DNA of 64,000 nucleotides from NCBI RefSeq assembly GCF_000165485.1, contig NC_014623.1, forward strand, positions 9,876,893-9,940,892, given 5' to 3'. Positions 17,227 through 36,849 of the stretch are shown here, piece after piece; position 1 is the stretch's first letter, and each line of letters starts with the position of its first letter. The translations under genes were made by a program, and so were the position numbers. The stretch comes from Stigmatella aurantiaca DW4/3-1. Lineage in GTDB: Bacteria; Myxococcota; Myxococcia; Myxococcales; Myxococcaceae. Under the pieces are notes generated by a model, which was not told the DNA's origin, made no database searches, and saw nothing but the letters and a program-made list of their open reading frames with translations.

Positions 17227-17967
17227 CTGAACCAGCATTATCCCAGAATTCGAGTCCACTCGAAGGACGGCACGCTTCTCCTCTGTGAGGGGTTGAACTT
17301 CACCTTCTACATGCGTCACCCCCATTCCGAGGTGGCCCAGGGGGTCCTGACTGCGCTGGAGCATTACCGAAGCGCTATCGGCTCGGATGGATTGGACCTG
17401 TATGCCGACGATGACGGGGCATGGTGGAAGCGGGATGAGGAGGGGTGGGACCTCATTCTCCGCAAACTGCACAGGCCGCATCGAGCCAACATCCATCTCG
17501 TGGATGCGTCAGCAGATGGGCACCGCTACCGGTTCGATTATGACGGCAAGCGGCTTGGTTCTCCTGCCCTCGTCCATGAGCCTGGGGCAGTCTCCGCCGT
17601 GGCCTTCTGGCTTCCTACCGAATATCTGGAGGAGCAGGGCCCGGTACCCGGGGTTGGATATTCCCGATCTGGAGAGACACTCCTGGGACATTGGCACGAG
17701 GGTGAGGACCATCTCTTGGGGGCAACGGGCCTTCGCTCGCGATTGTCGTGCCCAGGCACCCAGGTCGAGGAGATGGAGGGTGGGCGTGCCGTGGTCACGC
17801 GGGGTGCCTCACCTGAGGCGGGAGATACAGAAGCAGGCCAGATGCTTCCAGGCTATCGGGAACTCGCTCAAGTCCTGGAGCCTTGGCTTTATCAAGAGAC
17901 GTTTCTGCCTGGCTCGGCGTTCTCCGAGGAAGAGCTGCGCCGATGGGAGCGCCGCTTCCTCGACTGA
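17227..17967 (+). pseudogene. Decayed DUF3396-type (type VI immunity family) gene
   Basis: The N-terminal part reads HYPRIRVHSKDGTLLLCEG in a frame with no start codon; the ATG at 17205 is in another frame. The body (EVAQGVLTALEHYRSAIG, LHLV-like IHLVDAS, SFWLPTEYLEE-like AFWLPTEYLEEQGP) then breaks. A conserved RYPGLDIPDLERHSW stretch lies in a second frame (about 17636-17730), and the end (GLRSRL, EEMEGGRAVVTRG, EAGDTEAG, EEELRRWERRFLD) is back in the first. Compared with intact relatives as I remember them, about 45 codons and a shorter piece are missing at the two frame changes. It is a pseudogene unless these are assembly errors. Confidence 0.6.
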
Positions 17968-18166: not shown

Positions 18167-18502
18167 TTCGAAGAGCAGGAGGGCCCTGAGGCAAAGGTAG
18201 GGCTGCTCCATGCGGCCGTCACCGAGCCTGTGGGGGCCACGAAGGTTCCTCCTGGCGGGGAGGGCGTTGCCCTGGACTTGCCTCAGCGGCCACTCCCGGG
18301 ACAGCTCAAGCCCGATGCTTCGGGGAGATGTCCTGGGCGAAGTCACACCTCTCTCAACGGAGGATGCTGGCGAGCACTCGAAGGTGGCGAGGAGAAGTGC
18401 GCAGAGGACGAGTATGTCCACAAGGGCAAGTGCTACGCGCCCGTCTTCCCACGAGGGCGGCAACCCACCTCGGAAAGCTCACTGGATGCGGGCTCGCCTT
18501 GA
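18167..18502 (+). pseudogene. Remnant: 3' end of a Ser/Thr kinase gene
   Basis: These 336 bases match 21920-22255 without any gap and with few substitutions, and they end at the same TGA. They encode the extracytoplasmic tail of the kinase (GQLKPDASGRCPGRSHTSLN, EEKCAEDEYVHKG) but no kinase domain and no start. It marks an older copy of the kinase, joined upstream at 18167 to unrelated DNA. The region 17968-18166 before it holds no convincing gene. Confidence 0.8.
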
Positions 18503-18740: not shown

Positions 18741-19211
18741 TCACACCTCCTCGTCAGGCAAGAGCGTGCGGAGCAGTTCATCATCCGGGCCGAGCGGGCG
18801 CCAACCGGGCGGTGGCGGCCTGGCGAGGAGTGTCGCCATGAGCTGTCTGGCACGCGTCTTGTGCGTTTCTGGAGTAAAACCAATCCAGGAAGCCAATGTC
18901 TCGGCGACAGCAAAACGGGATTCGTCATCCAACACGTCCGGCCAGCCACCAGGGAGGCTCTCGGAGAACTCGCGCACGAGCTGTCCGCGTACCAAGCGAG
19001 TCACTTGATGGTTCCGCTCTGCCTCGTCCACCAAGCCGCTCCACAACTGCACCGCATTGAGGTCACCACCGCCAAGTTCCTCCGCCAACGCGTAGAGGGG
19101 AATGGCAGGATGGGCCTCAGCGAAGGCAGTGAGCGAAGCATAACCGCGCTCGCGGACTCGCTCATACATGCGGACTGTCCAATTACCAAGCCAGGAACGG
19201 CCCTCGCTCAT
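18741..19211 (-). CDS. Probable immunity protein of the toxin-immunity pair
   Basis: The 156-residue cytosolic protein starts MSEGRSWLGNWTVRMYERVR and has alternating helices ending in PPPPGWRPLGPDDELLRTLL. I recognise it as a myxobacterial family often found right after DUF2380-type lipoproteins (sometimes labelled NUDIX in databases, though no Nudix box is present). Its ATG overlaps the stop of the upstream toxin gene (ATGA), so the two are translationally coupled. Two related scars occur at 22291-22440 and 26109-26576. An immunity role is inferred from this pairing. The 238 bases between it and the kinase-tail remnant contain nothing recognisable. Confidence 0.65.
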   Translation of the reverse strand: MSEGRSWLGNWTVRMYERVRERGYASLTAFAEAHPAIPLYALAEELGGGDLNAVQLWSGLVDEAERNHQVTRLVRGQLVREFSESLPGGWPDVLDDESRFAVAETLASWIGFTPETHKTRARQLMATLLARPPPPGWRPLGPDDELLRTLLPDEEV

Positions 19212-20635
19212 CGCGTTCTCCCTGAGGTGAAACTCATGGGGATGTCATAATTTCTCATGTACCTTGCGACGATCTTCAGGATCTGATCCCGCGTCAACCT
19301 TCGGCCAGCGGCCGTCTCGGCGTCGCGCAGAACACTCATGATCATCTGATTCCACTCTTTGGGCCATGTACGCCCCAAACGCCAGTTGCCACCACCGTGG
19401 ATTGCTTGATGGTGCGCCATCTCTAACTCGACGCAGAATTGGTCGATGCTCATTGGGCCGGTAAAGCCTCGCTTTTCGAACCACTCTCGAAATTCAGCAG
19501 GCAGGACATGATGGCGCGGCCGTTCCGGCATGCCCGCCCCCGCTTTGCCTGTCTCGTGCATGGCCCGAACCTCGGGGCCGTCTCCCAGCGCGTCGCGCAC
19601 TCCCTGCGGCAAGTCCTGGCGCGTTTGCGCCATCATCACCTGGCCCGCTTGGATGCGCACCGCGGCGCTGACAGCGGTCACGGAGAGGATGCCCGCCTGG
19701 ACGAGCCGGCGCATCCTCTCCACCCACTCGGTGGTGACGATGAGCTGCGAGCCCATCATCACCCCGTTGGAGCCCATCACAAGCCCCACGCCCAGTAGGG
19801 CGGGAGCAGCGGGCGGCAGCCGCGACAGCGACATCTTCAACCCCGATACCAGGGTGAGCATCTCCATCGCCTGGGCTGCGGCCATGATCTGCCCCCCGCG
19901 CTCCGTGGCCACGCGCGCGGCATCACGGATGGACTGGAACTCACGGGTGAGCTGGCACATCAGTTCGGGCATCGCTGCTGCCGCTGCTTCGACGTGCCCT
20001 GGGTCCAGAGACGCGAGCGCCCTCATGGAGGGCTCAAGTCTCTTCTGCACGCGGTTCACGTCTGCCACGAGCCTCTCTGCGCTGTAGAGCGGACATTGCC
20101 GGAGCATCACCTCGGCGAGGTTCAGGAAATCGACCCATGCAGCAAGCAGGGCTGCACCGGACATGGCAGCTTGAAGCCGTGGGCCACCCATGCGGAGAAT
20201 GCCCAGTTCCATGTCCAGGTCCTCTGCCTCCGAAGCAGCCCCCGCAAGCGTGGCAGCCGCTCCGAGCGCACCGTGAATCCATTGCAGTTGCTGGGTGCCG
20301 TAGCCAATGGACCGGTTAAACGCGCCATTGGCCCTATTTCCGAGGCCCCCTCTTCCGGTGGAGAATTGGCGAAGCGAGGCAGCAATCCCACCCGTGGAGC
20401 GCTTCACGTCATCGATGGCACCGAGCAACGCTTGCTGCATTTGCGTCACGCGCTGACGCTCTGGGCCTGAAGCGGTGGGAAGCGCCGTTTTTTGGGAAGA
20501 GAACGTGCGCCCAGCGAGTCTCGCCGTCTGATTGTAGTGGCTGACAGCCTCGTCGCGAACCTCCGTGCGCCCGGCCCCCGCTGTACAGCCCGTGAGCAAG
20601 GCTGCCACACACCCCAACGCGACAGCCAGCTTCAT
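19208..20635 (-). CDS. DUF2380-like lipoprotein toxin with HNH-like C-terminus
   Basis: The 475-residue product starts at MKLAVALGCVAALLTGC, a signal peptide with lipobox LTGC. The middle is Ala/Met-rich helical, with a hydrophobic patch (PAAPALLGVGLVMGSNGVMM). The C-terminal 100 residues carry a histidine-rich nuclease-like pattern: RPRHHVLPAEFREWF, EMAHHQAIHGGGNW and WPKEWNQ. This matches the myxobacterial DUF2380 lipoproteins, which resemble SitA-type kin-discrimination toxins that are passed between cells by outer-membrane exchange (established for SitA; inference here). The immunity gene overlaps its stop codon. No frame damage is visible. Confidence 0.7.
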   Translation of the reverse strand: MKLAVALGCVAALLTGCTAGAGRTEVRDEAVSHYNQTARLAGRTFSSQKTALPTASGPERQRVTQMQQALLGAIDDVKRSTGGIAASLRQFSTGRGGLGNRANGAFNRSIGYGTQQLQWIHGALGAAATLAGAASEAEDLDMELGILRMGGPRLQAAMSGAALLAAWVDFLNLAEVMLRQCPLYSAERLVADVNRVQKRLEPSMRALASLDPGHVEAAAAAMPELMCQLTREFQSIRDAARVATERGGQIMAAAQAMEMLTLVSGLKMSLSRLPPAAPALLGVGLVMGSNGVMMGSQLIVTTEWVERMRRLVQAGILSVTAVSAAVRIQAGQVMMAQTRQDLPQGVRDALGDGPEVRAMHETGKAGAGMPERPRHHVLPAEFREWFEKRGFTGPMSIDQFCVELEMAHHQAIHGGGNWRLGRTWPKEWNQMIMSVLRDAETAAGRRLTRDQILKIVARYMRNYDIPMSFTSGRTR

Positions 20636-20830
20636 GCGTCCACCTGTGCCAACAAGAGCGTTGGAGGTTACCCTCACTCCGGCTCGGAGGGCGCGGAAGC
20701 CGCCGCCACGTTTGCCCTGCTCGAGGCGGCGAACCTGGCCGCGCTTCTGGAGCGCAGGCGCGCCGCCGCCGTGTGAGCTCCCGTCCCGGCTGCCCACCTC
20801 TGGGGTAGGGTACGGACGGAAGGAGCCTCC

Positions 20831-22255
20831 ATGGACAGAAGGTCGCAGCTCAACCCCGGTGCGTTGCCCCCAGGCACCCTCGTGGGGCCCTGGCAGGTGA
20901 CGGGATGGCGCGGCCGGGGCAACTACGGCACCGTGTACCAGGCCTTGAAGCGCGGGCATGAGGGCTCGGGCCTCGTGGCGCTCAAGCTGGCCCACTTCCC
21001 CGAGGACAAGCGCTTCGGCCGGGAGGCGGAGTTGCTCTCGCGCATTCACCACCCCCACGTGCCCCGGCTGCTGGATGCAGGGCACTGGCCCCACCCCTCC
21101 GGGGCCTTCTACCCTTACCTGGCCATGGAGTGGGTGGAGGGCGAGCCGCTGTACACCTGGGGCCAGGTGCACCAGCCCTCCTCGCGTCAGGTCCTGCGGG
21201 TGCTGGCCCAGCTCGCGCGAGCACTGGAGGCCACACAGGCCGCAGGTGGCGTGCACCGCGACGTCAAAGGCGACAACATCGTGGTGATGCCCGCAGAGGC
21301 ACAGGCCTATCTCATGGACTTTGGCTCGGGCATCTGGACCGGCGCTCCGCGCATCACCGAGGAAGTGTTGCCGCCGGGCACTCGGCCCTACCGCTCACCG
21401 GAGGCCTGGCGCTTCCAGGGGAAGCACCGCCTCCACCGCACGGTCCGGTACGAGGCCGCCCCCGGGGAGGATGTCTATGCCCTGGGGGTGACCGCCTACC
21501 GTCTGGTCACCGGCGTGTATCCTCCGCCTGCCTGGGAGCCCTCGGCGCGGGAGGACGGCCAGCGGTCCTCCACGCCCATCCGCAGTCCGCCCCAGGTGCT
21601 CAACGCGCGGGTGGCGCTCCCCCTGGCCGTGCTCATCGAAAGGATGTTGGCGGAGGCTCCCGACGTCCGCGGCAGCGCGGGCGCCATGGCGGAGGCACTG
21701 GAGGAAGCCGCCCAGCGTGCAGGACCGGAGGCGGATGTTCCCTTGTTCGGCTCGAAGAGGACGCAGGAGGCGCCCAGGCCTCTCCAGGAACATTCCCCTG
21801 TGTCCGCGCGCAAACCGGCCCGCAGGGGGATGCTCTGGAAGGCGGCTCCCGTCCTGGGCGTCCTGCTTGTGGGCTCATGGTGGCGTGCCAGCAGGCCCCA
21901 CTCCACTACTGGGACGCAGTTCGAAGAGCAGGAGGGCCCTGAGGCAAAGGTGGGGCTGCTCCATGCGGCCGTCACTGAGCCTGTGGGGGCCACGAAGGTT
22001 CCTCCTGGCGGGGAGGGAGTTGCCCTGGACTTGCCTCAGCGGCCACTCCCGGGACAGCTCAAGCCCGATGCTTCGGGGAGATGTCCTGGGCGAAGTCACA
22101 CCTCTCTCAACGGAGGATGCTGGCGAGCACTCAAAGGTGGCGAGGAGAAGTGCGCAGAGGACGAGTATGTCCACAAGGGAGAGTGCTACGCACCTGTCTT
22201 CTCACGAGGGCGGCAACCCACCTCGGAAAGCTCACTGGATGCGGGCTCGCCTTGA
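20831..22255 (+). CDS. Membrane-anchored Ser/Thr protein kinase
   Basis: The product has 474 residues behind a GGAAGGAG ribosome site. The kinase domain (about 15-290) has the Gly loop GRGNYGTVY, the ATP Lys in VALKLAHF, the catalytic HRDVKGDN, the metal-binding DFGSG and an activation segment ending RPYRSPEAW. One membrane helix follows at about 335 (APVLGVLLVGSWW), then a 120-residue outer tail with four Cys (GRCPGR, GGCW, EKCAED, GECYAP). The tail is duplicated at 18167-18502. The gene is divergent from the toxin gene; kinases of this type are common beside such loci in myxobacteria. Confidence 0.9.
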   Translation: MDRRSQLNPGALPPGTLVGPWQVTGWRGRGNYGTVYQALKRGHEGSGLVALKLAHFPEDKRFGREAELLSRIHHPHVPRLLDAGHWPHPSGAFYPYLAMEWVEGEPLYTWGQVHQPSSRQVLRVLAQLARALEATQAAGGVHRDVKGDNIVVMPAEAQAYLMDFGSGIWTGAPRITEEVLPPGTRPYRSPEAWRFQGKHRLHRTVRYEAAPGEDVYALGVTAYRLVTGVYPPPAWEPSAREDGQRSSTPIRSPPQVLNARVALPLAVLIERMLAEAPDVRGSAGAMAEALEEAAQRAGPEADVPLFGSKRTQEAPRPLQEHSPVSARKPARRGMLWKAAPVLGVLLVGSWWRASRPHSTTGTQFEEQEGPEAKVGLLHAAVTEPVGATKVPPGGEGVALDLPQRPLPGQLKPDASGRCPGRSHTSLNGGCWRALKGGEEKCAEDEYVHKGECYAPVFSRGRQPTSESSLDAGSP

Positions 22256-22261: not shown

Positions 22262-22290
22262 GAATCGCTGGAAACCTGTTCACGATAGAG

Positions 22291-22440
22291 GGGTATGGCA
22301 GGACGGGCTCCAGCGAAGGCAGTGAGCGAAACATCACCGCGTTCGCGGACCCGCTCATACAGGCGGACCCTCCAATCGCCACGCCAAGAGCGTCCCTCGC
22401 TCATCGCGCTGTCCCTGAGGTGAAGCTCACGGGAATGCCT
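22291..22440 (-). pseudogene. Scar of a second toxin-immunity pair
   Basis: Read on the minus strand, 22405-22440 encodes the last dozen codons of a DUF2380-type toxin (VSFTSGTAR then stop), overlapping by ATGA the first 38 codons of the immunity gene (MSEGRSWRGDWRVRLYERVR and on). The reading then runs into the kinase-tail homology. Only fragments of both genes remain. Confidence 0.7.
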
Positions 22441-22491
22441 TCATTCGCCACGGAACCGGGCGCCCTCGCAGCAGATGGCTCGAAGGAGGCT

Positions 22492-22983
22492 TCACGCCGC
22501 GGGCGTTGTCAACTCCAAGAAGAGACGCTCGACAGCAAGCCGATGCTGTACGGAATTGAGGAGCCCGTTCCTTGCATCCTGCCGGAACGACTCGAACTCA
22601 CGGCGGGCTCTCGAGAGGCGGGCCTGGAGGGCATCGACCTTCGTCCTGTCTGCATGGCGGCCCAGAGTCCGGTTGAGCAGTGCTCCCCCGAGAGTTCCCA
22701 CCGCTGCGCCCAGAATAGTTCCTCCTCCGAGAGCGATGGAACTGAGGCCCTCCACCCCCCACTGCTTTCCCTTCGCATCAATGACTTCTCGGTTGGACCG
22801 AACCACCGCGAAGAGCCCCCCCGCGCCTAGCACCGCTCCGCCCGCCAGCAACACCGCCGCCAGCATGTCGTCCTGCTCTCTGAGGAGCTTCGCAAGCGCC
22901 TCTGTGCAGAAAATGGTCCAGTCCTCATAAAAAGCCTCTGGCCGATCAGGCCATTCCGTTGGCGGTTTAGGACTTGGGCTCAT
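22492..22983 (-). CDS. Small membrane protein of the sigma-54 activator operon
   Basis: The 163-residue product has two hydrophobic segments (MLAAVLLAGGAVLGAGGLFA at about 40 and IALGGGTILGAAVGTLGGAL at about 86) and a charged C-terminal coiled coil (RLSRARREFESFRQDAR). There is no signal peptide. It overlaps the end of the sigma-54 activator gene by 17 bases, so they are co-transcribed. I do not recognise the family. It could anchor or modulate the activator; that is inference. Confidence 0.65.
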   Translation of the reverse strand: MSPSPKPPTEWPDRPEAFYEDWTIFCTEALAKLLREQDDMLAAVLLAGGAVLGAGGLFAVVRSNREVIDAKGKQWGVEGLSSIALGGGTILGAAVGTLGGALLNRTLGRHADRTKVDALQARLSRARREFESFRQDARNGLLNSVQHRLAVERLFLELTTPAA

Positions 22984-24289
22984 GTTCCTTGAGCAGCTTC
23001 CTCAGCGTTCCGCGGTCTACGCCGAGACGCTCAGCTGCCTCCGATAGGTTAGGGGAGAGCCCTCGGACATGGGCCGCGTACCATGACCTCACCTGCTCGA
23101 TCGTCCAAGTGCCATCGCTCAGCGCTTCGGGAAGATGACCTCCGTGCCCTGCTGGGTGGGGAGCAGCGTGCGGCTCCAATCCGAGTGCCAGGGCCCTCAC
23201 GACCTTGCTCAACTCGCGGACATTCCCAGGCCAGGCATAGTCCTTCTTTTTCTCGATGAAGCGGGTGAACCGGTCCTTGAGCTCAGGCCTCACGCTCGCA
23301 TCGGCTTTCTCGATCTCAGCCTCGGCGATCAGCGGAATGTCCTCGCGGCGGTCCCGGAGCGGGGGCAACTGAATAATGACCGACGAGAGGCGATGGTAGA
23401 GATCCTCACGAAAGCGCCCCTTCCGCATGTGGTCTTCCAACGGTTGGTGGGTTGCCGAGACCACACGTGGCGCGGCGGGAGCATCCCTCTTGGAGCCCAA
23501 TGGCCGTACCTTCCCCTCTTGAAGCGCCCGCAGGAGCGACACCTGCGTTTTGAGAGGCAGTTCGGCGACTTCATCGAGGAACACCACCCCTTCGTGGCAG
23601 AGTTCGAAGACCCCTTTCATCTCGCCCGCCCCCGTAAACGACCCCTTCTTGTGGCCAAAGAGCGTACTCTCCACCAATGTGTCGGGCAGCGCAGCCAGAT
23701 GCACTGACTGGGAGGGCGGAGGGGTCCACGTTCCATCTCTCCATGTTCCTGGCATCGACCGGCAGAGTGCCTGCCCCACCAGTTCCTTGCCCGTCCCCGT
23801 CTCTCCTCGGATCAGCACAGGCGTTGTCTGGATGAGCGGCGCCAGTCCCCGCACCAGCGCGAGGTTTTGCCCAAAGGCTGCTCCCCAGGCCTCCTGCCGA
23901 ACCCGGCGCATCATCTCGGTGTCACCCACGATCAAGTCGAGCGCGTCCTTCACAGCCAAGCACCGCGCCGCGAGTTCCGCGCAGGCCTCCCTGAACTTCA
24001 CAGGCAGAATCTGTGCCGCCTCATGGATGTGCACGCGACGCGACTCAGCAGGGGCCATCCTGCTCACACCAACACACAGGATGAGCCCAACGGCGTCATC
24101 CTGCTGGGCGAAGGGGGAAAGCGCCGCCCACCAGCGTGCCCACTCAGCGACGCTCCCGGGCAAAGCTTCTTCGGCCCGGAGGCTGTTCCACGTCCCGCGC
24201 ACCTCCGGCAGGTAGGGGTTGCCGAGCAACGCCACTTCCAGTTCGCCGAGGCGCTGGGGGAATGGCTGGGCCGATGAAGATCGCGACAT
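22967..24289 (-). CDS. Sigma-54-dependent activator with a GSFTGA loop
   Basis: The 440-residue protein starts at MSRSSSAQPFPQRL. Residues 1-130 are an unrecognised input domain, not a receiver, FHA or GAF that I can see. Residues about 140-350 form the AAA+ core: Walker A GETGTGKE, Walker B GVVFLDEVAE, FREDLYHRLSS. The sigma-54 contact loop reads GSFTGA rather than GAFTGA; changes here can weaken sigma-54 engagement. The C-terminus has a Fis-like helix-turn-helix (LSEAAERLGVDRGTLRKLL). It is divergent from the radical SAM gene, whose upstream region carries a sigma-54-like promoter, so that gene is the likely target. Confidence 0.85.
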   Translation of the reverse strand: MSRSSSAQPFPQRLGELEVALLGNPYLPEVRGTWNSLRAEEALPGSVAEWARWWAALSPFAQQDDAVGLILCVGVSRMAPAESRRVHIHEAAQILPVKFREACAELAARCLAVKDALDLIVGDTEMMRRVRQEAWGAAFGQNLALVRGLAPLIQTTPVLIRGETGTGKELVGQALCRSMPGTWRDGTWTPPPSQSVHLAALPDTLVESTLFGHKKGSFTGAGEMKGVFELCHEGVVFLDEVAELPLKTQVSLLRALQEGKVRPLGSKRDAPAAPRVVSATHQPLEDHMRKGRFREDLYHRLSSVIIQLPPLRDRREDIPLIAEAEIEKADASVRPELKDRFTRFIEKKKDYAWPGNVRELSKVVRALALGLEPHAAPHPAGHGGHLPEALSDGTWTIEQVRSWYAAHVRGLSPNLSEAAERLGVDRGTLRKLLKEHEPKS

Positions 24290-24339
24290 GGTGAAAAATT
24301 CGCCAGGGAGTGATGCTCTTTTCACCACGTACTACAAGT

Positions 24340-24373
24340 CTCGGTGTGCTTCCACTCTTGTGGAGAGGCCGAG
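24340..24373. promoter_or_regulatory. Imperfect dyad, candidate activator-binding site
   Basis: CTCGG and CCGAG flank an inner TCCAC / GTGGA pair. The dyad lies between the sigma-54 activator and radical SAM genes, about 50-85 bases upstream of the predicted start of transcription for the radical SAM gene, a suitable place for an enhancer. Confidence 0.4.
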
Positions 24374-24402
24374 CACGAGAGGACTGGCCTCCTCGACGGC
24401 GT

Positions 24403-24418
24403 TGGCACGCACCTTGGA
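24403..24418 (+). promoter_or_regulatory. Sigma-54-like promoter of the radical SAM gene
   Basis: The sequence TGGCACGCACCTTGGA fits the consensus TGGCACR-N4-TTGCW with one mismatch (G for the C in the -12 element). The spacing between the -24 GG and the -12 position is exact. It lies 27 bases before the GTG start of the radical SAM gene, on the correct strand, beside a sigma-54 activator gene. Confidence 0.5.
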
Positions 24419-24445
24419 TTGTCAGCGAGGAGACCCAAGGGGGAG

Positions 24446-25801
24446 GTGGCGTTGACCACGCAAATCCGTCTGGATGTGCAGGCATTCAAGGAACGGGAGA
24501 GCAGGCGCCGTCCGGTCTTCGTGCTAGCGCTGGACTGGACACGCGCCAAGGATCCCCGCGTCCCGTTAGGCCATGCCTCCCTTGTCGCCAGCCTGCGCGC
24601 GGCCGCTGGGATCGAGGTGTCTCACCGTTCATTCCATCTCAACTCCGCGGATTTCCAATTGGAGTCCGTCGTCGAGGCTGTCCTCGACTGGGATCGCGGG
24701 ACCCGTGGGCAATCGGGTGATTTGGGAATCGGTGTCTACATCTGGAACGAGCACCTCGTGCACTGTCTGCTGGGGGAACTCCGCCGCCGTGGATTCAGCG
24801 GCCGGATCGTGCTCGGCGGACCACAGATTTCCTACGCGCCCGCTGGAGTCGAGCAACTCTACCCAGAGGCAGACTGCTTCATCCGCGGTTACGGGGAGAC
24901 AGCGTTCGCGGCCGTGGTGGCCACCCGCGAGCAGATCACGCACCCGGGCGTGACCTGGAGGGGACAGGCAGAAGCCACTTCACGGGCCGAGGCAGACTTG
25001 GCGTCTCTGCCTTCACCGCTCCTGACAGGGCTCATTCCCAGCGAGGGCCAGCGGTACCTGCGATGGGAGACTCAACGTGGGTGCCCTTATCGCTGCACCT
25101 TCTGCCAGCACCGAGAGTCAGGTGCCCGGCTGCGCAACACCCGCTTCCCCATGCAGAGGCTGCGCGAAGAGATCGCGCTGTTTGCCCGCGCGGGGACCCA
25201 GGAAATCGATGTCCTCGACCCCATCTTCAACCTTGGGCAGGAGCCTCTTCTCGTCCTGGAAGAACTGGTCCGCCAGCGCATTCAAGCCCGGATCTCGCTG
25301 CAATGCCGTTTTGAGCTACTGAAGCCCGAGTTCCTGGAACTCTGCACCCAACTGAATGTGTTTCCAGAGTTCGGGCTACAGACGATCCACACAGAGGAGG
25401 GACGTCTCGTCCAGCGGCAGAACGACATGACTCGCGTCGAGACCGCCATGGGAGAGCTGGCACGGCGCGGAATCGCCTACATGGTGACGCTCATCTACGG
25501 GCTGCCGGGGCAGACGCTGGAGTCTTTCCATGCGACCGTGGAGTTCTGTCTGAAGCGAGGGGTTCACGTGGTGCGTGCCTTTCCTCTCAACCTTCTGCGC
25601 GGCACTGAGTTGGAGCGCGACAAAGCACGATGGGGCTTGGTGGAGAGCGATGATCCCATCCCGATGGTGATCCGCAGCAACTCTTTTGATGAGGCCGACT
25701 GGCACCAAATGCGCGGGCTCGCGGCGTTGCTCTCGAAGACTGAAGGGCACCATCCGGCATCGGTGGCGCAATTACTGCATCAGAAGTTGAACGCAGCTTG
25801 A
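24446..25801 (+). CDS. B12-binding-type radical SAM enzyme
   Basis: The product has 451 residues from this GTG; a TTG two codons downstream is better spaced to the AAGGGGGAGG ribosome site and may be the true start. Residues about 70-190 resemble a cobalamin-binding Rossmann domain (GVYIWNEHLVHCLLGELRRR, IVLGGPQIS, ADCFIRGYGE). The radical SAM core begins with the 4Fe-4S motif CPYRCTFC (about 210) and includes EIDVLDPIFN and LIYGLPGQT. Such enzymes often methylate unactivated carbon or rearrange peptides and small molecules. A 64-residue peptide gene follows within 30 bases. The substrate is unknown. Confidence 0.85.
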   Translation: MALTTQIRLDVQAFKERESRRRPVFVLALDWTRAKDPRVPLGHASLVASLRAAAGIEVSHRSFHLNSADFQLESVVEAVLDWDRGTRGQSGDLGIGVYIWNEHLVHCLLGELRRRGFSGRIVLGGPQISYAPAGVEQLYPEADCFIRGYGETAFAAVVATREQITHPGVTWRGQAEATSRAEADLASLPSPLLTGLIPSEGQRYLRWETQRGCPYRCTFCQHRESGARLRNTRFPMQRLREEIALFARAGTQEIDVLDPIFNLGQEPLLVLEELVRQRIQARISLQCRFELLKPEFLELCTQLNVFPEFGLQTIHTEEGRLVQRQNDMTRVETAMGELARRGIAYMVTLIYGLPGQTLESFHATVEFCLKRGVHVVRAFPLNLLRGTELERDKARWGLVESDDPIPMVIRSNSFDEADWHQMRGLAALLSKTEGHHPASVAQLLHQKLNAA

Positions 25802-25831
25802 TGAACTCAACCGTCCATAGAGGATACCGAA

Positions 25832-26026
25832 ATGAAATCCATGACCAGGTCCAATCGCAGCTCGATGCAGGTCCAGCGGTTCACCCCTGAGGCACGCTCC
25901 ACGGTTGCCATTGCCGTGACGCCCCAGCGAACGAATGTGTCTATCCCCCATAAGCCGGAGGCGCTCGTGGCAACAGGAGCGATCCTCGTCTTCGCTGGCT
26001 TGGTTCTGGCTGCCCTCGACGAGTAG
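25832..26026 (+). CDS. 64-residue peptide with C-terminal hydrophobic helix
   Basis: A GAGGAT ribosome site precedes the ATG, 30 bases after the radical SAM gene. The N-terminal half is basic and Ser/Thr/Arg-rich (MKSMTRSNRSSMQVQRF), and the end is a membrane-type helix (LVATGAILVFAGLVLAALDE). It may be a small membrane protein or the substrate of the radical SAM enzyme; neither is shown. There is no family I recognise. Confidence 0.5.
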   Translation: MKSMTRSNRSSMQVQRFTPEARSTVAIAVTPQRTNVSIPHKPEALVATGAILVFAGLVLAALDE

Positions 26027-26108
26027 GCAAGGCTCGGATTACGCTCCCATCGTTCGCGATGCCATGCGCCGCGTAGCCCCCCCTCCACAAGAGGGGGGCG
26101 TAAGGGTC

Positions 26109-26576
26109 TCACTCAGCGTCTGGCAAAAGCGTGCGGAGGAACTCGTCATCCGGGCCAGGCGGGCGCCAACCGGGCGGCGGTGGCATGGCGAGGAGCGTTG
26201 CCGCGATCTGCCTTGCGCGATCCTGAAGCGGCTCTGGGGTATAACCGATCCAACGGGCGAGTGCTTGGGCGGCCTCGAACCGGTTTGCATCATCCAGCAC
26301 GGCGGGCCAGCCCTCGGGAAATCCCTCGGACAACTCGCGCACGAGCACATCCCGAACCAAATGCATGACTTGATTGCGCTATTCCGCCTTGGCATGCAAT
26401 GCGCTCAACAGCTGCACGGCAGCAACATCATCCTGCCCGAGCTCATCGGCCAGCACATACAACGGGACCGCTGGACGCCCTGCGGCAAAGGCGGTGAGCG
26501 AATCGTAGCCTCGCGCACGGACCCGCTCATACATCCGGACCCTCCAATTGCCGCTCCAGGAGCCCCCCTCGCTCAT
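26109..26576 (-). pseudogene. Third immunity-gene copy, broken by an in-frame amber codon
   Basis: The frame starts MSEGGSWSGNWRVRMYERVR and continues to LHAKAE, then an in-frame TAG (26379-26381), and goes on in the same frame as RNQVMHLVRD to PPPPGWRPPGPDDEFLRTLL. In the intact relative at 18741-19211 the TAG position is Arg (DEAERNHQV). Just upstream (26573-26605) the last 11 codons of a toxin (GIALTPGRVR, stop) survive with the ATGA overlap. So this is a scar of the same cassette with the toxin deleted and the immunity gene point-mutated. Confidence 0.75.
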
Positions 26577-26628
26577 CGCACTCTCCCTGGGGTCAGAGCG
26601 ATCCCCTTCATTCCGGCTCCGGCCGCGA

Positions 26629-31809: not shown

Positions 31810-32202
31810 ATGCCCGTCATGGCTTTCACCCCGAATCTGCCCGCTGCAGCACGTCGACATCTTGAGGCAGCCGAGGAACTTGTCACCGGCACCCGTCAAG
31901 ACGTTGCTGGGTACCTGTACGGCATCGCGGCTGAGTGCGCCGTCAAAGCAATGATGGAGAACATCCCTCTCGTGCGTCGCGACGAAGCGTTCTACGCCCA
32001 TTTTCCAGAACTCCGTACAATCTTGCGTGACGCTCTCCAAGGAAGAGTTGCCCGCCCCCTGTCGGCTTTGATCAACGACGACAGGTTCCTCAACAACTGG
32101 CATGTCCGGATGCGGTATGCGGACAGTCGGCAAATCTTGAGCGACTGGGTGGCTGCATGGAGTGAGCAGGCGCGGCGCGCCGTCAACGCCATGGGGAGCT
32201 GA
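31810..32202 (+). CDS. HEPN-like small protein, first gene of a defence-like operon
   Basis: The product has 130 residues (or 127 from the second ATG, MAFTPNL). It is all-helical, with AAARRHLEAAEELVTG and YLYGIAAECAVKAMM, the pattern of HEPN-type bundles found in toxin and defence systems. The catalytic RNase motif Rx4-6H is not visible, so it may be structural or a sensor. It is followed after two bases by the KGGVGR ATPase gene, so it belongs to a tight three-gene operon. G+C content drops here compared with the gene upstream. Confidence 0.6.
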   Translation: MPVMAFTPNLPAAARRHLEAAEELVTGTRQDVAGYLYGIAAECAVKAMMENIPLVRRDEAFYAHFPELRTILRDALQGRVARPLSALINDDRFLNNWHVRMRYADSRQILSDWVAAWSEQARRAVNAMGS

Positions 32203-32204
32203 CG

Positions 32205-33578
32205 ATGGCCAAGTCAATCGTGCGGTTCGATGACAGCCTGCCGATTCTTACCGAAGTGGTTGCTAGCGAGTTGGGCCACGAGACATTGGCTGCTGGTACA
32301 ATCTTGAGAGACACGATGGGCCGATTGGCCTTCTTCTCAGCTACGGCACTTCCCGAGGAGACCGTTACTCATCTCTCCATACGCCTTCAGGAAGCGCTTG
32401 GCGCTTACGCACGAACGGACCGCATCGTTGCTAGCGCCAGTGACTACGGCACAGCACCCGTGCTCACAGATCCTTTGACGCTGCGGATCACCATTGGACC
32501 ACACAGTGTCCGGTTGCTGGATAGAAGGCTTGTGGGGGCCGACTGGTTGCGTGCGCCCGCCCCGCCCGCCCCTCCCCCCCCTCGTTTCGTTTTCTCCAGC
32601 CTCAAGGGCGGCGTCGGACGGTCTACGGCGCTGACCGTCGCTGCAGCCCACCTAGCGGGGCGCGGCGGGCGCGTGCTTGCAATCGACCTAGACATGGAAG
32701 CCCCTGGCCTCGGCTCGGTTCTTCTTAACTCCGATACTCTGCCCGAGTACGGCATCATTGATGCGCTGGTCGAAAACGGGCTCACCCCACTAGACGAAAG
32801 CTTCTACGCGGATCTGATCGGTCCATCAGCGCTCGGAGGTCAACGCGGACGCATCGACGTCATTCCGGCTTTCGGGCGCCGCTCCATGAAGCATCCTGCC
32901 GACGTGCTAGCCAAGATCGCGAGAGCCTATGCCGAGGAATCACAACCTGACGGTTCGGTAGCCACGATTCTCGACCAGGTGCGCGCTATCGTGAATCATT
33001 TCGCGACACCGGCACGCTATGATGCCATCTTGGTAGATGCACGTGCCGGATTGCACGAAACCACAGCCTCTTCTGTCCTAGGGTTGGGTGCCGAGGTTCT
33101 GTTGTTCGGCCTAGACGAGCCGCAAACATTTCAGGGTTATGCTGCGCTATTGGCACACCTCGCACGATTCGTTCCAGCCAATGGACCACCACCGGAATGG
33201 CTTGAACGCCTGACAATGGTCCAAGGCAAAGCACCCTTGGATCCCGAAGAGCGCGCTGGCTTCGAGCAGCGGTGCAGCACGCTCTTTGCCGAGATTGGCT
33301 TAGGTCCACGGCCGTCCAGAGCTACCAGAGAGGCTCCTTTCCCGGCGGGCCCATTTCATGACGTCCCCTGGGATGAAGACGTGCCCGACGAGGAAGTCCT
33401 GCCCGAAGAATGGGGCCCTCGCAATCCCCTCGCTGTGCTTGATGATGCACGCTTCCAGCGATTCAACCCACACCTGCGGCGCGACCTCCTATCCGAAGCC
33501 GTGTATCAAACCGCCTACGGTGCGCTCCTCAACCGGATCGAAAACGCCGTCTTCGCCAAGCCTCCATCGAACCCGTGA
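32205..33578 (+). CDS. KGGVGR-variant ParA/MinD-like ATPase
   Basis: The 457-residue protein has an N-terminal 120-residue domain of unknown type, a Pro-rich linker (APAPPAPPPPRF) and a deviant Walker A ATPase: FSSLKGGVGRSTALTV (KGGVGR in place of KGGVGKT), switch AIDLDMEAPGLGS, and DAILVDARAGLHE. ParA/MinD-type proteins dimerise on ATP and act as switches on DNA or membranes. This variant is one I associate with conserved cassettes that include a second P-loop ATPase. The stop overlaps the start of the next gene (GTGA). Codon use is less GC-biased than in neighbouring host genes. Confidence 0.75.
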   Translation: MAKSIVRFDDSLPILTEVVASELGHETLAAGTILRDTMGRLAFFSATALPEETVTHLSIRLQEALGAYARTDRIVASASDYGTAPVLTDPLTLRITIGPHSVRLLDRRLVGADWLRAPAPPAPPPPRFVFSSLKGGVGRSTALTVAAAHLAGRGGRVLAIDLDMEAPGLGSVLLNSDTLPEYGIIDALVENGLTPLDESFYADLIGPSALGGQRGRIDVIPAFGRRSMKHPADVLAKIARAYAEESQPDGSVATILDQVRAIVNHFATPARYDAILVDARAGLHETTASSVLGLGAEVLLFGLDEPQTFQGYAALLAHLARFVPANGPPPEWLERLTMVQGKAPLDPEERAGFEQRCSTLFAEIGLGPRPSRATREAPFPAGPFHDVPWDEDVPDEEVLPEEWGPRNPLAVLDDARFQRFNPHLRRDLLSEAVYQTAYGALLNRIENAVFAKPPSNP

Positions 33579-35032
33579 AACTTACCGCTGCCGAGTACCA
33601 GGACATTCGCAAGGCCATCGCATCCTTGCCCGCTGATGTGTCCAATGACGCGATCGGCAATCATGCCCCCAAGCTTGAAGAACTCTATGCACCGGAGACG
33701 CACGCAGCCGCTCTCGATCCTGAAGCGCCCATCGTTTTGGGGGTCCGCGGAACAGGAAAAAGCTTCTGGGCGGGGGTTCTCGGCAAAGAGGAATTAAGGG
33801 AAGCTGCAGCCACGGCGTATCCCAAGCTGGGTCTAAATCATCTGAATGTCCAGTTTGGCTTCACTGGTCTAGACAGTCTCAACGGAATTGGCCGCGAGAA
33901 GTTAGATGCCTGTGTTCCTGCCAATGCCGGGATTGATGAAGCCCGCTTTTTCTGGTGGGCCACCATCCTCTATGGCCTTGCTCAAGCAGAGGGAAAACAG
34001 CCGACCAAACTTTCCAAACTGCTGCCTGCTGCCCGTGACCTTGAGGAACGAGAGGCAATCCTCGACCGTCATGAGAAAGCGCTTCATGCGCGCAGCCGAA
34101 CACTGCTGATCGTCTACGACGCACTGGACACGATGGCGATCTCCTGGCCACGGCGGCAACTGCTGACTCAGGCGCTGTTGGAGGTTGTTTGGTCCATGAG
34201 AGCGTATCGCGCCATCCGGCTCAAATTGTTCCTGCGTCCGGATCAGCTTGAGGATGATGCTCTCCGATTCGTCGAGCTACCAAAGCTCCGGACGGGGGCG
34301 GTTCGATTGACGTGGCCCGGAACCGACCTCTACGGTTTGCTCTTCGCACGATTGGCACTCAGTGATGCCTCTGTCTCTTTCGGGCGCCTACTTGAGAGCT
34401 TGGGTCTGCGCATGGGCTCTAGAACAGAAATTCTCGCGCGGCATTGGTCTCTCGGGCACGACGTTTCTGATCAAAAGCGTCTGATGACCGCACTGACAGG
34501 GCCTTACATGGCCGATGGGGCTCATGGTTACAAAAAAGGCAATACATACGATTGGCCCCTTGCACATCTAGGTGATGCCTTTAACGAAGTGACCCCCCGC
34601 AGCTTCTTGGGCTTGGCCATCGCCGCAGCAACATATGGAGCGGCTCCCCCGGATCGCGTTCTCACCCCCGATGGTATTCGACACGGCCTGCGGGCCGCAT
34701 CGAAGACCCGGGTCGATCAGCTGCACCAAGAGTTTCCATGGATCAAGGGCGTGCTTGCGCCGCTCGCAGGGCTCTTACTTCCACAGGAAGAGAAGGAGGT
34801 CTTTACCGTCTGGCGCAAAACGCGCACGTTACCCAACGCCATCGCGGACGCTCAGAAAGAGGACTACCTCCCCCCATTTCCAGAGAGCGGGAGCAACGAC
34901 GAGCGTAGCCTATACATGGCACTTGAGCGCATCGGAGTGATGTTGCGGCGCAAGGACGGACGGCTCGATATGCCCGATCTGTTTCGGGTGGCAGCAAAGC
35001 TCCTCAAGAAAGGCGCGACGGCGCCACTTTAA
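33575..35032 (+). CDS. P-loop ATPase of the defence-like operon (Sll1717-like)
   Basis: The 485-residue product starts with GTG overlapping the preceding stop by four bases. Walker A is GVRGTGKSFW (about residue 55), and Walker B with its acidic residues is LLIVYDALDTMA (about 178). The rest is helical with a C-terminal charged domain. It resembles the P-loop ATPase, Sll1717 family found in putative defence or conflict systems. No nuclease, transmembrane or TPR part is recognisable, so the effector activity is unknown. The operon ends 28 bases before the ISL3 inverted repeat. Confidence 0.65.
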   Translation: MKLTAAEYQDIRKAIASLPADVSNDAIGNHAPKLEELYAPETHAAALDPEAPIVLGVRGTGKSFWAGVLGKEELREAAATAYPKLGLNHLNVQFGFTGLDSLNGIGREKLDACVPANAGIDEARFFWWATILYGLAQAEGKQPTKLSKLLPAARDLEEREAILDRHEKALHARSRTLLIVYDALDTMAISWPRRQLLTQALLEVVWSMRAYRAIRLKLFLRPDQLEDDALRFVELPKLRTGAVRLTWPGTDLYGLLFARLALSDASVSFGRLLESLGLRMGSRTEILARHWSLGHDVSDQKRLMTALTGPYMADGAHGYKKGNTYDWPLAHLGDAFNEVTPRSFLGLAIAAATYGAAPPDRVLTPDGIRHGLRAASKTRVDQLHQEFPWIKGVLAPLAGLLLPQEEKEVFTVWRKTRTLPNAIADAQKEDYLPPFPESGSNDERSLYMALERIGVMLRRKDGRLDMPDLFRVAAKLLKKGATAPL

Positions 35033-35099: not shown

Positions 35100-36752
35100 T
35101 TACACAGCGAGAAGCACGCGCCGCCGCAGCAAATCGAAGCTGGCTCGTCCGTACATCTGACGCTTGAGGAACTTGAGCCTCGTGACCTGTCCTTCCACCT
35201 GGGCATTGCTCCACGGCGTGGTCAGTGCGGCGCGGATCGCCTCCCCCTCCTGTTCAAGTCCTGCGGCGAATGTCTCCACCGCGCGCACCCCGCAGGTGCA
35301 TGCCTCTCGGAGCCACGCCTCAAAGGCTTTGCAAGAAGGATTCGGCTTGGCGGCGTGGGTGATGCCCCTTTCACGCACCAATTGAGTGAATCGACGCGCC
35401 AGCGCGATGACATGGGCGGCTTCCTCATCCTGCTCGATGCGGACCAGCAGGGCCTTGTCGGTGGGACTGAGCGCTGAGAGCGGCTGCACGCACAGCCATG
35501 CCAGCTGCCTCGGCGAGGGGAGAGAGTTAGCGCAGGCTTCTGTCGGCGTGGACCGATTGTCGCGGCGGGCACGTGGCGTCGAGCGTGCCGGAGCAGCCCG
35601 CCGTGTCTGGAGCCAGCGGTGAACTTGACGCGAGGAGCCAGGATAGCCCTTGGCGCGAAGCTCTCGCCAAAGAAGGAGCGCGTTCTCACAGCCCTCCGCC
35701 TGCCGCCGCGCGAGGTGCTCCAGGTACGGGTCGAGGAGACTCGGCCCCGGGCGTCGAACGGCACGCTCAGGAAAAGCCTCCGCGAGGGCATACTTGCGCA
35801 CCGTCTCCCGAGCCAGCTTCAGGGCACGGCGGATGGTCAGCAACGGCTCCCCGGCCAAGTGGCGGCGGCGCACCTCTTGGTACGTGGCCAGGCGGCGTGT
35901 CCGGCTCTCTTCACCCGCGCTCACCTCGCTGCGCGTCCTTGGGAAGCTGGAACGACGGGGCCTCGGTGAAGCGGACGACTTCGGCACGCAGGGCAGCGCC
36001 CGCAGGCGCGCGTGCGCACCTGTGAGCCAGCGCTCCACCATTTGCCTTCCATTGAGCAGCAGGTGCCAGCGGTCTGCGACCTGCTGGGCTTTGGGGGCGC
36101 CCGCTTGGGCTGCCCGTGCATACTCGCTGGAGCGGTCCCGGGTGATGACTTGGACTCCGCGATGCCGCTGGAGCCACTGACTCACTGTGGGTGCCGAACG
36201 GTCAGGCAGCACGTCGACCACGCGATGGGCTTCCAAGTCGACGAGGATGGAACCGTAGGTTCGCCCTTTGCGCAGGGCCCAATCATCCACTCCCAACACT
36301 CGCGGTTTCTTCTCAGCAGGCCGCGGCGCACGGTGCATCAGCCGCAGGAGCGTATCGGGGCTGGCAGGCATCGCCAGGGGCTTGAGAAGCCTGGCCCCCG
36401 CTTCGGCCCCGGCTGTCATGCCCACCGCACACTGGGCTGTGGCCAGCCGTCGTGTCCGCCGAGCCCGAGCCGCCAAAAGGCGGGACACTGGCTCGGTAAA
36501 GGTGCGCCGAGAGCACTCTGGATTGCGGCAGTAGAAGCGGCGCACCCGCAGCTCAAGCTGAACTGGGCGCCCTGCGCATGGCAGGTCGGTGGGGTGCCGG
36601 ACGTAGGTGCTGTGGGGCGCGGTGCTGCGACTCTTGCAGGAGGGGCACTGCGCGCCCACGGACTCGGAACGCACTGTCAGGCGGGCTTGGGCGGAGCCCC
36701 TGCGCGCCACTCGCTCCACGTGGCAGCCCGGTATCGAATACAACGATGTCAT
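35100..36752 (-). CDS. ISL3-family transposase
   Basis: The 550-residue product starts at MTSLYSIPGCHVERV. The N-terminal zinc ribbon has CPSCKSR and FYCRNPECS, then a helix-turn-helix. The DDE core is recognised by GVDDWALRKGRTYGSILVDL and VQVITRDRSSEYARA; the C-terminal helical part ends with NAQVEGQVTRLKFLKRQMYG, containing the catalytic Glu region. The frame is intact, so it may be active. The ISL3 inverted repeats lie just beyond both ends of the gene. Confidence 0.93.
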   Translation of the reverse strand: MTSLYSIPGCHVERVARRGSAQARLTVRSESVGAQCPSCKSRSTAPHSTYVRHPTDLPCAGRPVQLELRVRRFYCRNPECSRRTFTEPVSRLLAARARRTRRLATAQCAVGMTAGAEAGARLLKPLAMPASPDTLLRLMHRAPRPAEKKPRVLGVDDWALRKGRTYGSILVDLEAHRVVDVLPDRSAPTVSQWLQRHRGVQVITRDRSSEYARAAQAGAPKAQQVADRWHLLLNGRQMVERWLTGAHARLRALPCVPKSSASPRPRRSSFPRTRSEVSAGEESRTRRLATYQEVRRRHLAGEPLLTIRRALKLARETVRKYALAEAFPERAVRRPGPSLLDPYLEHLARRQAEGCENALLLWRELRAKGYPGSSRQVHRWLQTRRAAPARSTPRARRDNRSTPTEACANSLPSPRQLAWLCVQPLSALSPTDKALLVRIEQDEEAAHVIALARRFTQLVRERGITHAAKPNPSCKAFEAWLREACTCGVRAVETFAAGLEQEGEAIRAALTTPWSNAQVEGQVTRLKFLKRQMYGRASFDLLRRRVLLAV

Positions 36753-36810
36753 CTTCGATTGTAACCGCTTCACCGGCAGCCTGCTGCCTTGGCCGGTTCC
36801 GCATGCTGGC

Positions 36811-36849
36811 TCCACACAAAGTGCGGGAGAGCCACCAAACCGGGGCAAG
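36811..36849 (-). repeat. ISL3 right inverted repeat
   Basis: This is the inverted partner of 35061-35099. It lies beyond the transposase start, as expected for the family. Confidence 0.85.

What the first reader, a model, noticed from the sequence alone, without database searches (positions are those of the whole stretch)
22492..26026. Divergent sigma-54 activator / radical SAM / small peptide unit
A stand-alone sigma-54 activator with a co-transcribed two-helix membrane protein faces a B12-type radical SAM enzyme and a 64-residue peptide with a hydrophobic C-terminal helix. Between them are a sigma-54-like promoter (TGGCAC-N5-TTGGA) correctly placed before the radical SAM gene and a dyad suited to enhancer binding. 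This could be a regulated peptide- or lipid-modification pathway.
Basis: partly seen in the sequence, partly recalled or inferred. Interest (0 to 1): 0.75.

Follow-up and report, generated by a model that had tools for sequence, protein, structure and literature searches.

The report
Sigma-54-controlled B12 radical enzyme, defence candidate
A myxobacterium-like genome carries a rare vitamin-B12-dependent radical enzyme, already on a list of untested anti-phage candidates, next to its own probable on-switch; the small peptide beside it was not found with the enzyme elsewhere.

Summary
The described anatomy is real: a sigma-54 activator overlapping a 163-aa membrane-like protein, divergent from a B12/radical SAM gene and a 64-aa ORF, with a plausible -24/-12 site. 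The reading as a conserved enzyme-peptide unit fails: activator, membrane protein and peptide are in 0 of 17 homologous loci. The enzyme matches the PADLOC phage-defence candidate PDC-M51A over its full length (459.8 bits); the family is sharply separated from other radical SAMs and patchy (10 of 96 family genomes). It folds like the cobalamin methylases TokK and CysS, with an invariant Trp at the position of TokK W76, under the cobalt. Nine myxobacterial relatives carry a different conserved promoter-like element. Several relatives lie near BREX, McrBC, HamA/LmuB-like or SIR2 genes, but random control loci also rang, so enrichment is not shown. The partner PDC-M51B was not found nearby. Best reading: an inducible C-methylase of a small molecule, possibly in phage defence; substrate unknown.

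The parts
22492..22983 (-). 163-aa protein with two hydrophobic Gly-rich segments (about residues 39-61 and 85-103), ORF overlapping the activator by 17 nt
   Evidence: only a sub-threshold bPH_10 hit (E 0.022); one marginal match elsewhere in 96 family genomes
22967..24289 (-). stand-alone sigma-54 AAA+ activator, 440 aa (alternative GTG start at 24328); N-terminal 140 aa unassigned, Fis-like HTH at the C-terminus
   Evidence: Pfam; PADLOC best RtcR_PspF2 E 5e-69 over residues 83-435 and profile positions 132-477, so the profile's N-terminal part is not matched; no family orthologue at E <= 1e-70
24286..24330 (.). 12-nt inverted repeat ACATGGTGAAAA-N21-TTTTCACCACGT, possible enhancer site
   Evidence: binding is inference
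24403..24418 (+). sigma-54-like -24/-12 site TGGCACGCACCTTGGA
24442..24446 (+). Shine-Dalgarno-like GGAGG, 5 nt before the TTG
   Evidence: sequence
24452..25801 (+). B12-binding / radical SAM enzyme, 449 aa, PDC-M51A family; CxxxCxxC at C211, C215, C218; Trp98 at the TokK W76 position
25832..26026 (+). 64-aa ORF with hydrophobic C-terminal helix, 30 nt downstream of the enzyme gene
   Evidence: no homologue in 95 other family genomes
26076..26099 (+). GC-rich hairpin after the 64-aa ORF (GCCCCCCCTC-CACAA-GAGGGGGGC), without a T run
   Evidence: sequence and fold; not called by the terminator scan

Best explanation
The core is a cobalamin-dependent radical SAM C-methylase of the PDC-M51A family, probably acquired with a foreign low-GC3 island. 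Here it sits under its own sigma-54 switch: the divergent activator binds the dyad near -120, loops to sigma-54 polymerase at 24403-24418 and turns on the enzyme plus the 64-aa ORF when its orphan N-terminal domain (perhaps with the membrane protein it overlaps) senses a stress. The enzyme then methylates an unactivated carbon of a small molecule supplied by the cell, most likely as part of an inducible anti-phage or stress response. Shown: gene content, family membership, predicted fold, Trp position, lack of conserved partners in the loci examined. Inferred: acquisition, regulation, methylation, substrate, defence role.
For: PDC-M51A profile: 459.8 bits, positions 4-416 of 420. In 18 genomes the 18 family places score 305-507 bits and the next 112 or less. 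Closest solved structures TokK and CysS by sequence (3e-29, 4e-28) and by fold (Foldseek 8e-24, 4e-24, model pLDDT 83.3). W98, invariant in 15 of 15 aligned members, aligns with TokK W76, the residue under the cobalt (passages of PMC9692996 and PMC13331322). Sigma-54 site, start codon spacing and intact activator fit. Patchy occurrence: 10 of 96 family genomes, 13 of 195 of the phylum including those, 4 of 392 in a sample around a planctomycete, itself one of the four. Defence-type neighbours in L007 (BREX brxA, brxB, brxC, pglX, and PDC-S01), L057 (AAA_5 protein with a type II restriction-enzyme match, McrC-like, HipAB), L031 (HamA/LmuA- and LmuB-like), L033 (SIR2_2, AlbA_2, RTasPDDEXK), L027 (SIR2_2), and PDC-M28ABC in the window.
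Against: No experiment on any member known to me; PDC-M51 is in 0 papers of the library and most PDCs are called unvalidated (passages of PMC12988326). The second catalogue gene is missing: of the PDC-M51B places listed in 18 genomes the nearest on the enzyme's contig is about 63 kb off, and two thymidylate-kinase queries hit 0 of 17 loci. My control does not show defence enrichment: 57 PADLOC families at E <= 1e-15 among 101 neighbour proteins against 55 among 121 from control loci. Single scans of neighbours in L006 (1), L043 (1) and L029 (2) gave nothing strong and in L032 (1) a partial 2e-11 match; neighbours in L028, L034 and L035 were never scanned singly. The window's PDC-M28ABC is separated from the unit by high-GC3 genes at 26.6-31.6 kb. 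No close relative in viral contigs (63 loci, at most 26% identity). The -12 element lacks the usual C.
Confidence: 0.42

Rival explanations
1. Ordinary accessory metabolism: the enzyme C-methylates a lipid or secondary metabolite, as TokK, CysS or KedN5 do, and its place near defence genes is only that of any mobile cargo gene.
For: The nearest characterised enzymes are natural-product methylases. Nine myxobacterial relatives stand in varied surroundings. The control loci also hit many PADLOC models.
Against: I recognised no biosynthetic gene cluster in the gene lists, but the neighbours were not annotated systematically for this. The family is shorter than TokK and CysS (449 against 681 and 645 aa) and lacks most of their C-terminal part.
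Confidence: 0.33
2. RiPP-like unit: the enzyme modifies the 64-aa peptide, whose hydrophobic C-terminus then acts on membranes.
For: The peptide gene follows 30 nt downstream with coding-like base usage, and B12 radical SAMs of RiPP pathways exist (sub-threshold ApyD hit, E 5e-15).
Against: 0 of 17 homologous loci encode the peptide; no conserved DNA follows the nine orphan relatives and no shared small ORF was seen by eye; peptide unique among 96 family genomes.
Confidence: 0.12
3. Decaying remnant: the unit is a degraded piece of an island and is not expressed usefully.
For: It lies among truncated duplicates and uses a TTG start and an imperfect -12 element.
Against: The enzyme carries every invariant column of the 15-member alignment, by definition, and has no stop inside; activator motifs are intact.
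Confidence: 0.08

Closest known systems
PADLOC PDC-M51 (phage-defence candidate; A = B12 radical SAM, B = thymidylate-kinase-like)
   Same: Full-length match to the A profile at 459.8 bits.
   Different: No B gene found nearby; a divergent sigma-54 activator, membrane protein and 64-aa ORF instead. That A and B form one system is read from the shared name; that B is thymidylate-kinase-like is inferred.
TokK and CysS (class 1 cobalamin radical SAM methylases)
   Same: B12 domain plus radical SAM barrel, WET-RGC with CxxxCxxC (TokK), Trp of the YVWN motif.
   Different: 20-22% identity in the structural alignments; about 200 aa shorter; no natural-product cluster recognised.
Prokaryotic viperin and OxsB (radical SAM makers of antiviral nucleotides)
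   Same: General logic only: radical SAM enzyme, defence catalogue, kinase-like partner in the catalogue; OxsB shares the B12 radical SAM fold (Foldseek E 3e-14).
   Different: Weak similarity (OxsB E 2e-4; mouse viperin E 2e-5, TM 0.34); Trp rather than the Asn-water arrangement reported for OxsB. That viperins sit with nucleotide kinases is recalled.
RtcR / PspF2-type sigma-54 activators
   Same: AAA+ and HTH, best PADLOC hit E 5e-69.
   Different: N-terminal part of that profile not matched; 210.9 bits against the RtcR cut-off of 650.

Membership tests
PDC-M51A protein family | profile match over nearly the whole length, well above other radical SAMs | tested here: met
   459.8 bits, positions 4-416 of 420; family 305-507 bits against 112 or less for the rest in 18 genomes; 3 of 14 control genomes ring at E <= 1e-10
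PDC-M51 system (A + B) | adjacent PDC-M51B gene | tested here: not met
   no listed PDC-M51B place within 60 kb of the enzyme in 18 genomes; 0 of 17 loci by tblastn with two thymidylate-kinase sequences
Cobalamin-dependent radical SAM enzymes, class 1 | N-terminal Rossmann-type B12 domain, CxxxCxxC radical SAM barrel, residue blocking the cobalt's lower face | tested here: met
   PF02310, PF04055; model and Foldseek; W98 aligns with TokK W76
Cobalamin-dependent radical SAM enzymes, class 1 | bound cobalamin and methyl transfer | not testable with these tools
   needs protein
KedN5 subfamily (NF033712) | score above 700 bits | tested here: not met
   97 bits
RtcR RNA-repair activator (NF038308) | score above 650 bits, with CARF sensor | tested here: not met
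   210.9 bits over residues 146-368; N-terminal part of the PADLOC profile not aligned
Sigma-54 AAA+ activators | PF00158, Walker A, GAFTGA-like loop | tested here: met
   GETGTGKE and GSFTGA; motif meanings recalled
RiPP enzyme with precursor | conserved adjacent precursor | tested here: not met
Anti-phage defence gene | protection from phage | not testable with these tools
   needs plaque assays
Anti-phage defence gene | neighbourhood enriched in defence genes against control loci | tested here: inconclusive
   57 families hit in 101 proteins against 55 in 121; members per locus not countable from the output

The most novel reading that the evidence does not exclude
The PDC-M51A enzymes are a cobalamin-dependent counterpart of viperin: they C-methylate a nucleotide (in catalogue systems then phosphorylated by the thymidylate-kinase-like partner) to give a phage-blocking analogue, and this genome has made the enzyme infection-inducible through a private sigma-54 activator.
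Probability: 0.13. Interest if true: 0.88.

Novelty: new variant of a known kind. Interest (0 to 1): 0.48.

Why it matters
No B12-dependent radical SAM enzyme is known to me as an anti-phage effector (recalled). The family is small, sharply bounded and carries a residue-level prediction (Trp under cobalt, methyl transfer), so its chemistry and any phage phenotype can be tested directly. The locus also suggests one enzyme placed under two different specialised promoters, which hints that it must be kept off until needed.

Tried and rejected
Enzyme-peptide pair: rejected, not conserved. Activator with a CARF sensor: not supported; the activator model is unusable (pLDDT 42, single sequence). PDC-M51B partner: looked for and not found. 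Viral origin: no close relative in viral contigs or phage records (9 records, best listed 29% over 44% of the query); plasmids: 47 records, 8 listed, best listed 28%. Papers: PDC-M51 in none; the PADLOC server paper does not mention PDCs in the text searched (passages); listings gave nothing on this family that I saw; passages of PMC11514479 and PMC10250203 only mention PDCs, or a radical SAM gene flanking a hotspot.

Defence enrichment: inconclusive. Limits: the output shows only 25 families a set; three hits of the test set (PDC-S37, Hhe, PD-Lambda-1) could not be assigned to a locus; kinases make up the commonest hits in both sets; the test set covers 14 of the 17 homologous loci and not the window; control regions were 12 positions that I picked by hand in genomes that carry the enzyme; 3 of 124 control ORFs were left out to fit the size limit; ORFs of 120 aa or more came from my own simple caller.

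Conserved promoter of relatives: TGAAT-N16-CGTC (7) or CGTT (2) lies at -81 to -90 in 9 of 9 myxobacterial orphans, in 0 of 5 others tested and not before the window gene; 15 sites in 691,024 nt, the nine included. The pattern was made from the same nine, so this is no independent test. A stricter form occurs in 3 of 10 genomes, once each and before the enzyme gene, so no wider regulon was seen. That it looks like an ECF-sigma promoter is recalled.

Flaws: L017 and L002 were read on the wrong strand, so their lack of a match says nothing; L018 (113 bits) is the only valid outsider there, and one search replaces that control. The tree holds the wrong-strand L017; one search replaces it: there the window enzyme groups with the nine orphans at 86/85 on a long branch, midpoint root. 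Two of the 18 family places are imperfect: G195 has a TGA in the frame as searched and G354 is a partial frame. Genome searches scored only some candidates per genome (at most 18, 8, 4), so misses are possible. Weak antisense matches of the peptide to the enzyme gene of the six relatives shown (best E 0.12) were taken as chance.
Full report
What was checked. The window is 64 kb of a single-contig 10.26 Mb genome. The radical SAM ORF as listed starts at GTG 24344, which would put the -24/-12 site inside it. The TTG at 24452 is the better start: GGAGG stands 5 nt before it, and in the alignment of 15 family members it lies at about the distance at which relatives begin before the first conserved residues.

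Promoter and activator. TGGCAC-N5-TTGGA at 24403-24418 is the only perfect match to TGGCACG-N4-TTGSW in the window. With looser rules such sites are no more common than in shuffled DNA, the -12 C is a G, and a similar site lies inside the activator gene (23175-23190, -). Its value is positional: right strand, right distance, beside an intact sigma-54 activator (PF00158, GETGTGKE, GSFTGA). The 12-nt inverted repeat at 24286-24330 is about 120 nt before the predicted start of transcription. The sigma-70-type scan found 0 sites in 22300-26200, with 0.4 expected. Regulation is an inference.

The enzyme. Pfam gives B12-binding and radical SAM. NCBIfam gives only sub-threshold hits, KedN5 first at 97 bits against a cut-off of 700. 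PADLOC-DB gives PDC-M51A, E 2e-138 over residues 19-432. Six relatives score 355-503 bits. Over 18 genomes the 18 family places score 305-507 and the next 112 or less; of 14 control genomes 3 ring at E <= 1e-10. So this is a compact, well-separated family. Its nearest solved relatives are TokK and CysS by profile and by fold (AlphaFold2 model pLDDT 83.3 from 15 sequences). W98 of the GVYIWN stretch, invariant in the 15, falls on TokK W76. Two reviews, of which I read passages, place W76 under the cobalt and speak of a hydrophobic surrounding there; the second says that TokK is thought to transfer the methyl group by a radical mechanism (PMC9692996; PMC13331322). Methylation of an unactivated carbon is thus the likeliest chemistry, by inference.

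Distribution. In the family, 20 of 96 genomes match at E <= 1e-20, of which 10 (own included) at 52-100% identity and 10 at about 30%. In the phylum 13 of 195 at E <= 1e-50, in a planctomycete-centred sample 4 of 392, the centre included. Two named metagenome-assembled records, a Polyangia and a Planctomycetota bacterium, came from the genome collection.

Partners. The activator, membrane protein and peptide are each absent from 17 of 17 homologous loci of 3.8 to 16 kb (tblastn E <= 1e-3). Elsewhere in the family the activator was found in 0 of 95 other genomes at E <= 1e-70, the peptide in 0 of 95, the 163-aa protein in 1 of 95 and only marginally (28% identity, E 3e-4). The activator's first 140 residues match 2 of 194 other phylum genomes, marginally. 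In five relatives outside the nine-orphan clade another gene stands directly upstream: three overlap the enzyme gene by 4 nt (L006, L007, L044) and two lie 118 and 65 nt away (L043, L057). No two of these five proteins match each other better than E 0.56 by BLASTP; one has TPRs, one a sub-threshold DUF4258 match, one an FGE-sulfatase part. The enzyme thus seems to be paired with changing partners, and the window's arrangement is one more.

Second promoter type. Nine myxobacterial orphans share TGAAT-N16-CGTC/T at -81 to -90 and a G-rich stretch before ATG, while the aligned DNA further up and downstream shows little conservation. A strict form was found in three of ten genomes and only at the enzyme gene. 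Window and orphans thus appear to use different specialised promoters for one enzyme.

Defence context. PDC-M51 is a catalogue candidate with no paper in the library; one paper says that PDCs were found by guilt-by-embedding and are mostly unvalidated (PMC12988326, passages). Near the relatives I saw BREX genes with PDC-S01 (L007), an AAA_5/McrC-like pair and HipAB (L057), HamA/LmuA- and LmuB-like genes (L031), SIR2_2, AlbA_2 and an RTasPDDEXK match (L033), SIR2_2 (L027) and a piece with a partial PDC-M27C match (L044). In the window a complete PDC-M28A/B/C lies at 31810-35032, but high-GC3 genes at 26.6-31.6 kb lie between it and the unit. Against enrichment, 101 neighbour proteins hit 57 PADLOC families and 121 control proteins 55, with DrmD/DpdE-type, ThsB and PDC-S28 hits among the controls. 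I therefore do not claim enrichment. Neighbours of L028, L034 and L035 were not scanned singly.

Island. GC at third codon positions is 0.67-0.76 for the called frames from 17.3 to 26.6 kb except one 59-aa ORF (0.85), and 0.83-0.94 for those at 12.3-17.2 and 26.6-31.6 kb; some called frames may be false. The unit probably came in with foreign DNA; it stands between copies of a small repeated gene.

Verdict. Anatomy confirmed, conserved peptide pathway rejected, enzyme re-identified as PDC-M51A. Most likely an inducible cobalamin radical methylase of unknown small-molecule substrate, possibly defensive. The bold reading, a B12 counterpart of viperin, is not excluded.

Noticed in passing
window 31810-35032 (+): Complete PDC-M28A/B/C phage-defence candidate (E 2e-25, 7e-96, 6e-114): HEPN-like (sub-threshold), ParA/CbiA-like NTPase and a 485-aa protein, low GC3, beside an ISL3-type transposase at 35100-36815(-).
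   Followed up: partly
window 17293-17967 (+): TsiV-like immunity protein for a VRR-NUC effector (PF11876, E 1e-28), matched in two stretches; also PDC-M20B.
   Followed up: no
window 18741-19252, 22286-22445, 26109-26617 (-): Three copies (one a fragment, one split over two frames) of a small gene starting MSEGxSW, next to a frame with a sub-threshold DUF2380 match (19208-20656, -); looks like a toxin-immunity array with decaying immunity copies, by inference.
   Followed up: partly
window 18167-18466 and 21920-22219: 300-nt direct repeat, 97% identical: the second copy is the 3' part of a Ser/Thr kinase gene (20831-22255), the first a stranded duplicate.
   Followed up: no
L027-L035, 81-90 nt before the enzyme start: Conserved TGAAT-N16-CGTC/T promoter-like element before nine orphan relatives.
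   Followed up: partly
L061 1417-3038: Thymidylate-kinase-like frame followed by a frame that by eye looks like a MoaA-type radical SAM protein, in another genome of the order; reminiscent (recalled) of prokaryotic viperin loci.
   Followed up: no
L006, L007, L043, L044, L057: The enzyme gene follows five mutually dissimilar genes, three of them overlapping it by 4 nt, so its likely operon partner changes from genome to genome.
   Followed up: partly
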